A stretch of 45,029 nt of DNA from Bacillota bacterium (GTDB lineage Bacteria; Bacillota_I; Bacilli_A; Acholeplasmatales; Acholeplasmataceae). The stretch spans positions 1 through 45,029 of the forward strand of contig JAHISX010000076.1 of the NCBI GenBank assembly GCA_018817915.1, given 5' to 3'. Below, one piece after another: positions 19,777-25,337 of the stretch. The translations under genes and the position numbers were made by a program. Position 1 is the first letter of the stretch; the number at the start of each line of letters is the position of its first letter. Below the pieces are notes generated by a model. That model searched no databases and was not told the DNA's origin. It saw only the letters and a list, made by a program, of their open reading frames with translations.

Positions 19777-19904
19777 TTAAAAAAGTATAAAATCACTATT
19801 TATGCTTAAATTTTTTGATTTATTGAACCTTTTTAAAAGAATAATTAGTATAAATTAATTCATAAAAAGATTTCTCGTATAAAATGAGGATGGAGGTAGA
19901 TATC

Positions 19905-20762
19905 ATGTCAATTTATCATACAAAAGATATATTACATATTTCTAGTATCACTTTACTCATCAAAGATCTTCATCGTTCTTTAGAATTCTATGTTGAGATT
20001 TTAGGACTTTCAATATTAGAAAAAGATAAACACAAAGTCGTATTAACTGTAAATCAAAAAGATCCATTAATTACTTTGATTGAAGATAGAAATGCTATAC
20101 CACCTCAAATCACACTTGGTCTTTATCATTATGCATTATTAGTTCCCAATAGAAAAGAATTAGCAAAAGTATTTAATCAATTCGTTTTTAAGAGATATCC
20201 GATTTCAGGAGCATCAGATCATGGTGTGAGCGAAGCTTTATACTTAGATGATCCAGATGGCAATGGCATAGAAATTTACCATGACAGAGAAACTAAGGAT
20301 TGGCCAGTTGAGGATGGTAAAATGACTATGTTTACAAAGCCATTAGATCTTGCATCCCTTTTGAGTGAATTAGGTCCGGAAGAACGATTTGAAAAAATGC
20401 ATGCTGAAACTTTGATGGGACATCTCCATTTTCATGTAGATGATTTTGATCAAGCAAAATCATTTTACGGTAATGCTTTAGGATTTGAAATTATGCTTCA
20501 ATTTGTGGATTCTGCGCTTTTTCTAGGCTCAAATGGTTATCATCACCATATAGGTCTTAATACATGGAATGGTCATGCACCATTAAATAAAGTCAAACAA
20601 GTTGGTCTTAAATCATATGTTCTAAGTATTCCTCATATGCTTTATCCAGCATTCATGAGAAGATTAACTCACCAACAAATACCTTTATTAGTTGATGGAG
20701 AAACAAAATATATCATTGATCCTCTCGGTCAAAAAATCACCTTTGATGTTCAGCCTTCCTAA
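19905..20762 (+). CDS. two-domain VOC (glyoxalase/extradiol dioxygenase) family protein
   Basis: This 285-residue protein has two vicinal-oxygen-chelate modules (about 10-125 and 165-285): HISSITLLIKDLHRSLEFY then LGLSILE, and LHFHVDDFDQAKSFY then LGFEIML. The size and arrangement resemble B. subtilis CatE (YfiE), a catechol 2,3-dioxygenase. Metal ligands are likely in LHFHV, YHHHIGLNTW and a later acidic residue. The open frame starts at 19884, but GGAGGT seven bases before the ATG at 19905 decides the start. It is one of the few + strand genes. Catechol cleavage is uncertain; other VOC activities are possible. Confidence 0.8.
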   Translation: MSIYHTKDILHISSITLLIKDLHRSLEFYVEILGLSILEKDKHKVVLTVNQKDPLITLIEDRNAIPPQITLGLYHYALLVPNRKELAKVFNQFVFKRYPISGASDHGVSEALYLDDPDGNGIEIYHDRETKDWPVEDGKMTMFTKPLDLASLLSELGPEERFEKMHAETLMGHLHFHVDDFDQAKSFYGNALGFEIMLQFVDSALFLGSNGYHHHIGLNTWNGHAPLNKVKQVGLKSYVLSIPHMLYPAFMRRLTHQQIPLLVDGETKYIIDPLGQKITFDVQPS

Positions 20763-20772
20763 ATTGATAAAG

Positions 20773-20808
20773 CCCTATATCCAAATTGCGATATAGGGTC
20801 ATTTTTTT
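20773..20808 (+). terminator. terminator after the VOC gene
   Basis: A 9-bp stem CCCTATATC/GATATAGGG (20773-20781, 20790-20798) is followed by seven T (20802-20808). The T-tract overlaps the stop of the convergent GLUG gene; in the minus direction it is only a weak terminator. Confidence 0.85.
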
Positions 20809-22072
20809 ATAAGTCTAAATAAACTCTTCCACTGACTGGTTCTTGTGTCCATAGTGGATTTGCAGCATTTAAAGTTGTATAAGCACTATCCCACCAAGCA
20901 TGGGAAGGCATAGAAGTTGCACTAACTACTGTGCTCATCTGCCCAGTTTGTCCAGTCGCGGTATATGTGATACCACCTCCGGTATCTCTGTATGCAACAT
21001 AGGAATAAAATACACCAGACAATACTGCAGTTTCTAAATCATTTCCTGTAACTGTACCTACATCACTATTTCTTATATCTAAACGTGTATATAAACTACC
21101 TGTAAAAAAACTATTTGTGATTGTAACATTTGAACCTACAGATGAGTTTCTACCAATCATTCCACCTAAATAACGATTTGAATAACCTAAATAGTTTGAG
21201 GTTGTCACTAAAGTATTTTGAAATGTTGATTCAACGATTGCCCTTTCAATTGATAAAAATCCACCAGATAATACATATCCAACCAGCCCACCAGCATTTG
21301 ATGAGCCTGCTGATGTGACAATATTTGAGTAAACATCTCCTAAAAAATCAATATCAGATAAAACAACTGAAGCATCCGCATTAATTCTTCCAACTAAACC
21401 ACCAACATTACTAGACTGATTAAAAACTTTTAAATTATTGACTTTAATACTGGAAATAGCAACCACAGTCCCCGAATTCCTTACTTGTCCTAAGAGACCT
21501 CCAACACCACCAGCACTAGTCCCTTGCACACCACAGTTATTTAGAACAATATTTTCAAAAACGATGGTACCACCAATTGCAGTTCCCCCAAAGAGACCTG
21601 CACGTTGGCTCGTTCCTGAAAGATTCGTTTCTAGTTGAACATTATCTAAAGTAAGATTAGAAACTCTTGCTCCATCTACTCTTGCAAAAATACCCATATG
21701 CAAATAAGAAAGACTAGGATTATTGATGGTTAAGTTGGAAATTATTTTATTGTTTCCATTTAATTCGCCTTTGAAAGTGGAATTGTAAATCGCGGCATCA
21801 TAGATCCAACTAAACCCTGTAAAGTCAATATCATTGGCTAAATAATAACGATCTGCAGGATTACTACTTGAGTCAGTTGCCATATCGAAAAACTCAGTTG
21901 TAGTAAAAATAGGAACTCCCCAATCACCGATTGTGACCACAGGAGCCCCTTGTACATTATCACCTGAAATTAAACTTGCCCAATAAGCGAAAGACATGCT
22001 AACTGAAAATAGCATGTTAATTAAAAGCATAGATACGACAATCTTAAGTTTTTTATTTTTTGTACTACTCAT
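20807..22072 (-). CDS. secreted GLUG-repeat surface protein A
   Basis: About 421 residues. The start has Lys/Arg followed by a hydrophobic stretch (VVSMLLINMLFSVSMSFAYW) and then VTIGDWGVPIFTTTEF; the rest is a run of degenerate repeats with G-G-L/I-x-G (VGGLLGQV, VGGLVGRI, AGGLVGYV, LGGMIGRN), the GLUG pattern found in beta-helix surface proteins. No LPXTG or C-terminal anchor is seen, so it is secreted or held by the N-terminal helix. The AYWAS segment recalls SipW-type alternative export signals, without proof. It is a paralogue of the gene at 22221-23474 throughout. The ATG at 22072 is chosen over a TTG eight codons upstream; the SD is weak. It has its own promoter and an upstream terminator. 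Confidence 0.75.
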   Translation of the reverse strand: MSSTKNKKLKIVVSMLLINMLFSVSMSFAYWASLISGDNVQGAPVVTIGDWGVPIFTTTEFFDMATDSSSNPADRYYLANDIDFTGFSWIYDAAIYNSTFKGELNGNNKIISNLTINNPSLSYLHMGIFARVDGARVSNLTLDNVQLETNLSGTSQRAGLFGGTAIGGTIVFENIVLNNCGVQGTSAGGVGGLLGQVRNSGTVVAISSIKVNNLKVFNQSSNVGGLVGRINADASVVLSDIDFLGDVYSNIVTSAGSSNAGGLVGYVLSGGFLSIERAIVESTFQNTLVTTSNYLGYSNRYLGGMIGRNSSVGSNVTITNSFFTGSLYTRLDIRNSDVGTVTGNDLETAVLSGVFYSYVAYRDTGGGITYTATGQTGQMSTVVSATSMPSHAWWDSAYTTLNAANPLWTQEPVSGRVYLDL

Positions 22073-22111
22073 GATAAACACAACCCAACAAATCAAAGTT
22101 TTTATAGATAG

Positions 22112-22140
22112 ATTGTATCATGAACAAACTTATATAACAA
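22112..22140 (-). promoter_or_regulatory. promoter of GLUG gene A
   Basis: Minus-strand TTGTTA (22135-22140), 17 bases, TACAAT (22112-22117) with TGA just ahead (extended -10). Upstream is a palindrome GAGCC-TAT-GGCTC (22146-22158). Confidence 0.75.
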
Positions 22141-22169
22141 ATCATGAGCCTATGGCTCGGATTCTAAAC

Positions 22170-22199
22170 AAAAAAAAGACTTCAGAATACCTGAAATCT
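22170..22199 (-). terminator. terminator after GLUG gene B
   Basis: A 9-bp stem AGATTTCAG/CTGAAGTCT (arms 22191-22199 and 22178-22186, one G-U) is followed by eight T on the minus strand. Its sequence is closely related to the terminator at 23565-23601 ahead of gene B. Confidence 0.85.
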
Positions 22200-22220
22200 T
22201 TTCCTAATTTTTTAGTTTAT

Positions 22221-23474
22221 TTATGATAAATATGGTCTGCCTAATCCATCTTGAGCCCAATAGCTATTTGCTGCAGCAAAAGGTACATAAAATGAATTCC
22301 ACCATGTGAGTGTTGGCATCGATGTTGCACTGACAGTCACAGCCATTTCACCAGTTTGACCTGTTTGAGTATAACTAACAGTTCCTGTACTTGTTCGATA
22401 TGCTACATAGGAGTGATATGTATTGACATGTGTCGCCTGTGTGGCATCTCTACCGGAAATCGTTCCTACAGCTGCTCTGTATGTATTGGTCTGATTGAAT
22501 AAGCTACCAGTGAAGAAAGCATCTGTGATGTGAACATTTGCACTTGCTGCTGCATTATAACCTATAAATCCACCTAAATAACGATCAGAATATCTTAAAT
22601 AATAAGTAGCATTTGTAACAAGAGTATTTTGGAATGTGGCTTCAACAATTGCTCTATTAATTGTCAAATACGTGCCCGATCTAATATATCCAATCAAACC
22701 ACCTGAATATCCAGATGATGTATAGGCATAAACCTGTCCTTCAAAATCAATGTCATTCATGGTTACTGTACCACCAGATGTGGTAACTCGACCAATGAGT
22801 CCACCAACATATGCACTACGATTAAAAACTCTTAAGTTGGTTGCTTTGATTTGTGATAAATTGACAACTGTACTTGAGTTTAATACACTGCCTATAAGTC
22901 CACCAACACCACTTGTGCTATTGCCTTGTGATCCACTATCAATGATGGTGATATTTCTAATATCATTTGTTCCACCATAAGCTTCTCCAGTGATTAATCC
23001 TGATCTTTGAGAGGTGCCTGATAAAGTCGTGACCGTGTTTACATTATCTAGTGTTAGATCATAGACCTCTCCACCGAGCATTCTAGGGAAAATTCCAGTG
23101 TATTTATATGATGTACTTGTATTGGTTATAGTTAAGTTGGATAGGGTTTTATTGTTTCCGTTAAGCGATCCTTTAAAGGTAACTGTGGAAAATGTTGAAT
23201 TATATACCCAGCTAAAACCCGCAAAATCAATATCGTTAGCTATATAGTATTTATCGGTATCTAGACTATTCGTTTTTGTTGCAAAATCAAAAAATTCTTG
23301 CGCATTAAAAATAGGGATACCCCATTCACCGATTGTGACAATTGGAGTGCCTTGACTTGAGCCATCTGCAATGGAACTTGCCCAGTATGCATATGACATG
23401 CCAGCCGTAAAAAGCGTGTTGATGAGGACTAGCATTAAAATGATTCTTATTTTAGTTTTTGATAATGTATCCAT
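22221..23474 (-). CDS. secreted GLUG-repeat surface protein B
   Basis: About 417 residues, paralogous to the next gene along its whole length: MSYAYWASS, VTIGEWGIPIFNAQEFF, YYIANDIDFAGFSW, SLNGNNKTLSNLTI, VGGLIGSV, VGGLIGRV, SGGLIGYI, LGGFIGYN and a C-terminal TGQTGEMAVTVSATSMP all have counterparts in gene A. A basic N-terminus and one hydrophobic helix give export; no cell-wall anchor is seen. Function is probably surface adhesion or antigen, by analogy with other GLUG/beta-helix proteins. The frame is open further upstream, but a TAGGA before the ATG at 23474 and the promoter at 23512-23540 limit the start to this ATG or the one at 23495. Confidence 0.75.
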   Translation of the reverse strand: MDTLSKTKIRIILMLVLINTLFTAGMSYAYWASSIADGSSQGTPIVTIGEWGIPIFNAQEFFDFATKTNSLDTDKYYIANDIDFAGFSWVYNSTFSTVTFKGSLNGNNKTLSNLTITNTSTSYKYTGIFPRMLGGEVYDLTLDNVNTVTTLSGTSQRSGLITGEAYGGTNDIRNITIIDSGSQGNSTSGVGGLIGSVLNSSTVVNLSQIKATNLRVFNRSAYVGGLIGRVTTSGGTVTMNDIDFEGQVYAYTSSGYSGGLIGYIRSGTYLTINRAIVEATFQNTLVTNATYYLRYSDRYLGGFIGYNAAASANVHITDAFFTGSLFNQTNTYRAAVGTISGRDATQATHVNTYHSYVAYRTSTGTVSYTQTGQTGEMAVTVSATSMPTLTWWNSFYVPFAAANSYWAQDGLGRPYLS

Positions 23475-23511
23475 TTGGTAATTTCCTAACTTCATATTTG
23501 TTACGATATAA

Positions 23512-23540
23512 ATTGTATCACAAAAGTAATCGTTATACAA
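23512..23540 (-). promoter_or_regulatory. promoter of GLUG gene B
   Basis: Minus-strand TTGTAT (23535-23540), 17 bases, TACAAT (23512-23517) with TGA ahead. It matches the gene A promoter in spacing and -10. Upstream is the palindrome GAAGA-CATA-TCTTC (23542-23555). Confidence 0.78.
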
Positions 23541-23564
23541 CGAAGACATATCTTCTTGATTTTA

Positions 23565-23601
23565 AACAAAAAAAGACTTCAAAATTATATTTGAAATCTT
23601 T
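23565..23601 (-). terminator. second terminator after nusG, ahead of GLUG gene B
   Basis: A 12-bp stem (arms 23590-23601 and 23572-23583, one G-U) is followed by a T-rich run on the minus strand. It is a homologue of the terminator at 22170-22199, so it belongs to the duplicated GLUG unit more than to nusG. Confidence 0.75.
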
Positions 23602-23620
23602 AATATTATTCAAAAGAAAT

Positions 23621-23642
23621 AAAAAGCGGTTTCCCGCTTTTT
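23621..23642 (-). terminator. terminator overlapping the nusG stop codon
   Basis: AAAAAGCGG/CCGCTTTTT (23621-23629, 23634-23642), loop 4, with T-tract on the minus strand. The nusG stop codon (23641-23643) is in the stem. It ends the rpmG-secE-nusG transcript, which in Bacillus would run on toward rplK. Confidence 0.82.
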
Positions 23643-24180
23643 AAAGTTCTTTAACCTGATTTGCATCGAATTCTGTAGGTGTTGCACGGCCAAATAAATC
23701 GAGATCAACAACCAATTTTTCTTGGTCATTATCAACGTTGACAACTTCACCTTTAAGGCCTATCCAAGTACCGTCGATGACTTCTACTTGTTTACCGATT
23801 AAATGATCAAATGTTGGTTTACTAATAACACCAATCTTTAATAGGATTTGATTGATTTCATCAGGAGCAAGTGGAACAGGTTTAGTTCCTCCACCTGATG
23901 AACCTAAGAATCCTGTAACTCTAGGTGTATTTCTTACAACGAACCATGATTCGTCTGTAACCATCATTTCTACGAAAACATACCCTGGGAAGAGTTGTTT
24001 GATTTTTTCTTTTTCTTTACCGTCAGCTTTTTTCTCAATAACGGTTTCTTCTGGGACAATGATTCTAAAAATAAAATCTGACATTCCCATACTTTCAACA
24101 CGTCGTTCTAAGTCAACTTTGACGGCATTCTCATAACCTGAATAGGTTTGAATAATATACCATCTAACAGCTTGACTCAT
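23641..24180 (-). CDS. nusG: transcription elongation/antitermination factor NusG
   Basis: NusG (179 residues) binds the beta-prime clamp and acts in elongation, pausing and coupling to ribosomes. The N-terminal NGN domain begins RWYIIQTYSGYENAVK and includes FPGYVFVEMMVTDESWFVVR and TPRVTGFLGSSG; the C-terminal KOW domain runs from about 125 (GKQVEVIDGTWIGLKGEVVNV). It overlaps secE by 4 bases, so the two are translationally coupled. Confidence 0.97.
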   Translation of the reverse strand: MSQAVRWYIIQTYSGYENAVKVDLERRVESMGMSDFIFRIIVPEETVIEKKADGKEKEKIKQLFPGYVFVEMMVTDESWFVVRNTPRVTGFLGSSGGGTKPVPLAPDEINQILLKIGVISKPTFDHLIGKQVEVIDGTWIGLKGEVVNVDNDQEKLVVDLDLFGRATPTEFDANQVKEL

Positions 24181-24830: not shown

Positions 24831-25337
24831 TTATAACATATTTTTATATTTTTCTTTGATTCTAAAAATGGTGTTGTATATTTGTTTTTTTGAATACCCA
24901 GTAAGTCTCAAAATCTCAGATACTGATCTACTTTGTAGGAAATACAACAAATGGATTTCTTGTTCAAGTACTGAGGAAAATGAAATAACATCAGGTTCTT
25001 CTTCTATATAGGTTGCACCTTTACAAAAATCTGTATGTTCATAAAGATGATAATTGGGAATATTATTTTTTACTCGGTATAATTGTCTTCTTAAAATCAT
25101 TTCAAAATATCGTGTGAAACTTTTGTTTTTAGAATCATCGAATGTCTTAAGTGCCTTATGTAGCATCAAAACACCTTCTTGGTGTAAATCGTCAAGTTCT
25201 TTGTCATCGACATTTAAGAGATGAACGTGCTTCCAGATGAATTTATGATACTTTTTGAACATGAATTCCATTGCGATGTCATCCTGCTCATTTTGGATAA
25301 GATAAACCAGTTCATAATCATTCATCACGTAGTGCAT
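24831..25337 (-). CDS. SigH-like alternative sigma-70 family factor
   Basis: A 168-residue sigma-type protein. Region 2 is visible as DLHQEGVLMLHKALKTFDDS then FTRYFEMILRRQLY (core binding and -10 recognition), and a C-terminal helix-turn-helix (SVSEILRLTGYSKKQIYNTI) stands for region 4. The protein is shorter than B. subtilis SigH (about 218 residues), mainly between regions 2 and 4. Its place between rlmB and rpmG is exactly that of sigH in Bacillus, so it is most likely the SigH orthologue, not an unrelated ECF factor. It begins one base after the rlmB stop and lacks a clear SD. Spore functions of SigH cannot apply here; competence-like genes are one possible target set. Confidence 0.78.
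   Translation of the reverse strand: MHYVMNDYELVYLIQNEQDDIAMEFMFKKYHKFIWKHVHLLNVDDKELDDLHQEGVLMLHKALKTFDDSKNKSFTRYFEMILRRQLYRVKNNIPNYHLYEHTDFCKGATYIEEEPDVISFSSVLEQEIHLLYFLQSRSVSEILRLTGYSKKQIYNTIFRIKEKYKNML

What the first reader, a model, noticed from the sequence alone, without database searches (positions are those of the whole stretch)
20807..23601. Tandem GLUG surface genes duplicated with their whole control region
The two paralogues each have the same order upstream: T-rich terminator with GAAGTCTTTTTTT, TTGTTTA-x-AATC, a palindrome, then a TTG-N17-TACAAT promoter. So the unit that was copied is terminator-palindrome-promoter-gene, which insulates each copy. Such units favour gene conversion and antigenic variation in surface proteins of wall-less bacteria.
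Basis: partly seen in the sequence, partly recalled or inferred. Interest (0 to 1): 0.55.

Follow-up and report, generated by a model that had tools for sequence, protein, structure and literature searches.

The report
Two old surface-gene paralogues, shared terminator
Two neighbouring genes for secreted rod-shaped (beta-helix) proteins in an Acholeplasma-like bacterium share a short transcription-stop signal, but they are old, long-diverged relatives rather than a freshly copied gene-plus-switch unit, and nothing here points to antigenic variation.

Summary
The shared anatomy is real but uneven. Upstream of both genes lies a 42-44 bp terminator block (37 of 45 columns identical, both 10-base stem arms identical). 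The second-best match of B's control region in the whole genome is exactly A's (E 1e-4; next 0.2), so it is not chance. The 'palindromes' differ in sequence and each is expected in 5-8% of comparable slots; the promoters share only TGATACAATnTAT. The claim that the whole unit was copied fails: gene A is sister to single-copy orthologues of two other species, an A+B clade is rejected (p-AU 0.003), and four-fold synonymous sites are close to random (43 of 105 identical, 34% expected). There are two copies only, no conversion tract and no phase-variation repeat. The proteins miss Pfam's GLUG cut-off, but A is predicted to be a stand-alone beta-helix like the N-terminal domain of M26 IgA1 proteases (PDB 3n6z), without a protease motif. 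Both carry a GMSFAYWAS-type signal region resembling SipW/TasA substrates; the genome has five SipW-family peptidase matches. Best reading: two divergent surface proteins, each with its own promoter and terminator, in a variable locus between nusG and a glyoxalase gene. Mostly ordinary; only the terminator's similarity stays unexplained.

The parts
22221..23474 (-). Gene A: signal region plus beta-helix protein, 417 aa from the ATG at 23474 (the open frame starts at 23549, but the -10 site lies inside that extension)
   Evidence: start chosen from an AGGA about 9 nt upstream; model pLDDT 87
20807..22072 (-). Gene B: paralogue of A, 53% identical protein
23568..23601 (-). Terminator block T1 upstream of A: stem arms 23601-23592 and 23581-23572, T-run 23574-23568
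   Evidence: (fold z -3.8)
22170..22201 (-). Terminator block T2 between A and B: stem arms 22201-22192 and 22184-22175, T-run 22177-22170
   Evidence: (fold z -4.7)
23558..23567 (-). GTTTAAAATC, shared tail after T1
22160..22169 (-). GTTTAGAATC, shared tail after T2
23542..23555 (-). Small palindrome GAAGATATGTCTTC upstream of A; may be chance
22146..22158 (-). Small palindrome GAGCCATAGGCTC upstream of B; may be chance
23512..23540 (-). Promoter-like site of A: TTGTAT-N17-TACAAT with TG before the -10
   Evidence: sequence; not in the list; extended -10 pattern seen in orthologues
22112..22140 (-). Promoter-like site of B: TTGTTA-N17-TACAAT with TG before the -10
   Evidence: (9 of 12 matches)
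23620..23643 (-). Separate terminator-like hairpin of the nusG operon, ahead of T1
20772..20799 (.). Hairpin between the convergent ends of B and the glyoxalase gene; T-run on the + side
23641..24180 (-). nusG, upstream neighbour
   Evidence: TIGR00922 163 bits against a cut-off of 135.7
19884..20762 (+). Glyoxalase-fold protein gene, downstream neighbour
   Evidence: PF00903 66 bits

Best explanation
A and B are two long-diverged paralogues encoding secreted or surface beta-helix proteins. A is the lineage's usual gene between nusG and the glyoxalase gene; B is an older, divergent copy kept or acquired next to it. Each is transcribed from its own extended -10 promoter, and T2 stops A's transcript before B, so the two can be expressed independently (inferred from anatomy, not shown). 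The proteins are stand-alone beta-helices like the N-terminal domain of M26 IgA1 proteases (predicted), without the protease, probably exported by Sec and cut at A|YW or A|FW by a SipW-type signal peptidase (inferred). T1 and T2 share an origin, but their similarity is confined to about 44 bp and was found only in this genome, so it reflects a short secondary duplication or conversion, or selection on the element, rather than recent copying of the whole unit.
For: Tree of 17 proteins: A with G009 and G016 (100/98), A with G009 (98/94), B outside; A+B clade rejected, p-AU 0.003. Four-fold sites 43 of 105 identical against 34% expected at random. One orthologue at this locus in 8 of 19 other genomes of the genus. 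No T1-like block in the 6 orthologues whose nusG-to-gene interval is readable; no hit better than E 0.014 in the 19 other genomes. T1/T2 similarity exceeds 5000 simulated terminators (44 against a maximum of 30). Beta-strand-rich model of A, pLDDT 87.3, best PDB match 3n6z, E 1.6e-9; no HExxH in 17 of 17 rows examined. [GS][ML][ST][FY]A[YF]WAS in 16 of 17 rows; the 17th (G012) lacks its 5' end. SipW-family peptidases: 5 matches here and 4-6 in each of the 20 genus genomes.
Against: The terminator block stays 82% identical although neutral sites are near random, which this account explains only by an extra event or by selection. Within coding sequence 2 of 1204 42-nt windows reach the same identity (0.17%). 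B's own position in the tree is unresolved (63/41 with G026). G026 has an orthologue with the same AYW motif but no SipW-family match at 1e-6, so SipW dependence is not universal. TIGR04088 (SipW-type signal) does not match A or B. Promoters are consensus matches, at a density no higher than in shuffles (24 found, 28.4 expected).
Confidence: 0.7

Rival explanations
1. One reading: a terminator-promoter-gene unit was tandemly duplicated as a whole, and the copies serve gene conversion and antigenic variation.
For: Head-to-tail paralogues, same order of elements, a terminator block found only at these two places.
Against: A is sister to other species' genes, not to B; synonymous sites near random; no conversion tract, longest shared coding word 17 bases; only two full copies; no repeat tracts that could switch expression.
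Confidence: 0.06
2. The block (hairpin, T-run, GTTTAnAATC) is a conserved cis-element under selection in this lineage, for example a terminator whose tail also acts at the promoter, binding a regulator or acting as an UP-like element.
For: Both stem arms 10 of 10 identical and the tail 9 of 10, while loop and flanks diverged, although neutral sites are near random; the tail lies 17-19 nt ahead of the -35 hexamer in both.
Against: Absent from all readable orthologues and from other sites in the genome; no Rfam family at this place.
Confidence: 0.2
3. T1 and T2 are alike by convergence on a favoured terminator sequence.
For: Intrinsic terminators are alike in shape and T-run (general knowledge).
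Against: 0 of 5000 simulated terminators match T2 as well; next-best genome hit E 0.2; the conserved tail lies beyond the T-run.
Confidence: 0.03

Closest known systems
N-terminal beta-helix (GLUG) domain of M26 IgA1 metalloproteases (PF05342; PDB 3n6z, 6xjb, 7uvk)
   Same: Predicted fold of A aligned over most of its length to 3n6z (E 1.6e-9, TM 0.53/0.63); B scores 22.3 bits on PF05342; 4 GG-x-x-G repeats in A and 4 in B.
   Different: No metalloprotease part and no HExxH motif; below the Pfam cut-off; 17% identity to 3n6z.
SipW-processed exported proteins (TasA, camelysin)
   Same: Hydrophobic signal ending in A followed by Y/F and W, i.e. an aromatic residue at P2' as in TasA (PMC10269814, abstract and passages read); SipW-family peptidases in the genome, one group next to a gene with the same AYWA signature.
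   Different: The mature part is a beta-helix, not a TasA-like fold (TasA fold recalled); TIGR04088 does not match A or B; A and B are not next to a peptidase gene.
Variable surface gene families of mycoplasmas (vlhA and others; recalled, seen only in a search listing)
   Same: Tandem surface-protein genes in a wall-less lineage.
   Different: Two old copies, each with its own promoter, no repeats and no recombination traces.

Membership tests
Recent tandem duplication of a whole transcription unit | The two copies are each other's closest relatives | tested here: not met
Recent tandem duplication of a whole transcription unit | Flanks and synonymous sites similar between the copies | tested here: not met
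   43 of 105 four-fold sites identical, 34% expected; outside coding DNA only the 44-bp block is alike
Antigenic-variation gene family | Several copies or silent cassettes in the genome | tested here: not met
   two full matches at E <= 0.01; the two others cover only the N-terminus; draft genome, 95.2% complete
Antigenic-variation gene family | Mosaic or converted tracts between copies | tested here: not met
   identity 47-60% in every 50-column block after the N-terminus
Antigenic-variation gene family | Variation among strains or over time | not testable with these tools
   one genome per species held
GLUG motif proteins (PF07581) | Score over Pfam's cut-off | tested here: not met
   B 10.1 of 20.5 bits, A none
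M26 IgA1 protease N-terminal domain (PF05342) | Fold of that domain | tested here: met
   model of A, 3n6z E 1.6e-9; sequence score below the cut-off
M26 IgA1 proteases | HExxH zinc-protease motif | tested here: not met
   absent in 17 of 17 rows
SipW-type signal peptide proteins | Match to TIGR04088 | tested here: not met
   no match for A or B at E <= 0.1
SipW-type signal peptide proteins | Aromatic residue at P2' after the cleavage site, and SipW-family peptidase in the genome | tested here: inconclusive
   motif and peptidases present, but the cleavage site is inferred and G026 has the motif without a peptidase match
Intrinsic (Rho-independent) terminator | Stable hairpin followed by a run of T | tested here: met
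   10 pairs plus T7/T8 in both; the scan does not list them because it asks for 3 G-C pairs

The most novel reading that the evidence does not exclude
A wall-less lineage that carries 4-6 SipW-family signal peptidases per genome uses a SipW/TasA-type export route for stand-alone IgA1-protease-type beta-helix proteins, which would form part of its surface coat or matrix; A and B would be two separately controlled components of it.
Probability: 0.35. Interest if true: 0.4.

Novelty: new member of a known kind. Interest (0 to 1): 0.2.

Why it matters
The case shows that a shared control-region layout is not evidence that a gene and its switch were copied together: the genes are old while a 44-bp terminator stayed alike. 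If the SipW reading holds, it would extend an export route known from Bacillus biofilm fibres to wall-less Acholeplasmataceae; in the held library no paper holds both 'Acholeplasma' and 'SipW', and the two that hold 'SipW' and 'Mollicutes' (listing only) are on other subjects.

Tried and rejected
Rejected: recent duplication of the whole unit; dispersal of the terminator block as a repeated element (no further copy); a known RNA family (only a chance-level match inside A's coding sequence); phase-variation tracts; protease function; a solved relative by sequence (none for B). The idea that the palindromes are a conserved operator was dropped because their sequences differ and such hairpins are common by chance. 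A paper search on duplicated terminators gave nothing relevant (listing only).

Full report
What is there. The window is a whole contig (C30, 45,029 bases) of a 2.13-Mb draft genome, 95.2% complete. On the minus strand, between nusG (23641-24180) and a convergent glyoxalase gene (19884-20762), lie two open frames, A (22221-23549) and B (20807-22096). Their proteins are 53% identical over 423 columns. The open frame of A begins upstream of its own -10 site; the likely start is the ATG at 23474, and that of B the ATG at 22072.

The shared control region. T1 and T2 each consist of AAAGATTTCA, a loop, TGAAGTCTTT and a T-run, then GTTTA-x-AATC. Both arms are identical between the copies, including a G-U pair; loop, T-run length and one tail base differ. 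A search of the whole genome with 116 bases of B's control region gives itself, then T1 at E 1.1e-4, then nothing better than 0.21. Against 5000 simulated terminators with T-runs the T1-T2 score of 44 was never reached, maximum 30. So this block is homologous. The palindromes are not the same sequence; hairpins as good occur in 163 of 2145 real and 5% of random 19-nt slots. The promoter regions share TGATACAATnTAT only, equalled by 24 of 1000 shuffles. An extended -10 (TGnTAYAAT or near it) recurs in front of orthologues read, so it looks like an ordinary conserved promoter.

Age of the pair. Of the 19 other genomes of the genus searched, 15 had some match to A at E 1e-5; 8 (G001, G007, G008, G009, G011, G012, G014, G016) have an orthologue beside nusG and/or the glyoxalase or DsbA-like gene, one at each such locus. 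In a 17-protein tree A joins G009 and G016 (100/98) and B does not; forcing A and B together costs 47 log units, p-AU 0.003. A is 75% identical to G009's protein where B is 53%, and A and B show 47-60% identity in all 50-column blocks after the N-terminus. Of 105 four-fold sites 43 are identical, against 34% by composition alone. The split of A and B is therefore older than the split of these species, unless B came from elsewhere; B's placement is unresolved.

The terminator paradox. In the 6 orthologues whose nusG-to-gene interval can be read (G001, G008, G009, G011, G014, G016) there is no T1-like block (read by eye), though G008, G009 and G016 have extra DNA there. In the 19 other genomes the best match to the block region is E 0.014. 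Neutral DNA of the age of A and B should be randomised, so T1/T2 likeness needs either a later short duplication or conversion, or selection. Against over-reading it: 2 of 1204 coding windows of 42 nt are as similar. This is the one unexplained point.

The proteins. Pfam gives only sub-threshold matches: B to PF05342 (22.3 of 27.7 bits) and to GLUG (10.1 of 20.5); A none. AlphaFold2 on A with 16 relatives gives mean pLDDT 87.3 and Foldseek finds 3n6z, a putative IgA1 protease of Bacteroides ovatus, at E 1.6e-9, then two IgA1 proteases below 0.001. HExxH is absent in all 17 rows; A and B lack an LPxTG motif and a strong second hydrophobic segment. The signal region ends in a motif of the form GMSFAYWAS in 16 of 17 rows; the other, G012, is cut by its contig end. 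In TasA an aromatic residue at P2' goes with cleavage by the dedicated peptidase SipW (PMC10269814, abstract and passages). The genome has 5 matches to TIGR02228, 4 over the cut-off; two lie beside a gene starting with the same AYWA signature. All 20 genus genomes have 4-6 matches. Against: TIGR04088 does not hit A or B and G026 has the motif but no peptidase match. A search with the N-terminal 51 residues finds two more carriers of the signature, on C48 and C56.

Wall-less host. PF00905 has no match in the genome and rings in 10 of 14 controls. Two relatives have names: an Acholeplasmataceae MAG and a Bacillota MAG. Acholeplasmatales are described as peptidoglycan-deficient, with mixed status predicted inside the order (PMC10868615, abstract and passages).

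Verdict. The step from there to a copied unit serving gene conversion and antigenic variation is contradicted by tree, synonymous sites and copy number. What remains is two separately expressed (inferred), old paralogues of a beta-helix surface protein, with a terminator whose likeness is not yet explained.

Noticed in passing
L039:9832, L041:6690, L041 about 10398, L046 about 3197, L044:8379: Orthologues or the second paralogue in G009, G014 (two genes) and G012 have no ATG, GTG or TTG before the signal core; an ATA or ATT stands where the start is expected, in three of the four 5-10 nt after an AGGA or AAGGAG. G011 has an ATT after AAGGAG too, with an ATG upstream. Possible ATA/ATT starts.
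   Followed up: partly
L042:1-640 and L043:7000-8130: In G014 two contig ends share 141 identical bases inside this gene family and one frame runs from a complete unit into a second one, suggesting a fused two-unit protein.
   Followed up: partly
L039:4755-9687: In G009 about 5 kb with a hybrid sensor kinase-like, an HD-GYP-like response regulator and a winged-helix response regulator-like gene (named by eye from the translations) sit between nusG and the orthologue; the interval is a variable site in the genus.
   Followed up: partly
L041:10374-11639, L044:3518-4729, L046:3203-4414, L047:1064-2302, L048:8715-9932: A second, distant paralogue (about 30-36% identical) lies ahead of the small gene upstream of L11 in 5 genomes (G007, G008, G011, G012, G014) but not in the window.
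   Followed up: partly
L045:8223-9345: The orthologue of G016 is broken or misassembled: its two parts lie in different frames, with residues 313-358 of A unmatched between them.
   Followed up: no
L077:1279-4545: A cluster with two SipW-family signal peptidases, a third membrane protein and two small exported proteins, one weakly matching TIGR04088 (14.1 of 19 bits) and one with the AYWA signature.
   Followed up: partly
window 24831-25337: A sigma-70 region 2 protein with SigH-like matches (below the equivalog cut-offs) lies upstream of secE-nusG and is conserved there in the relatives.
   Followed up: no
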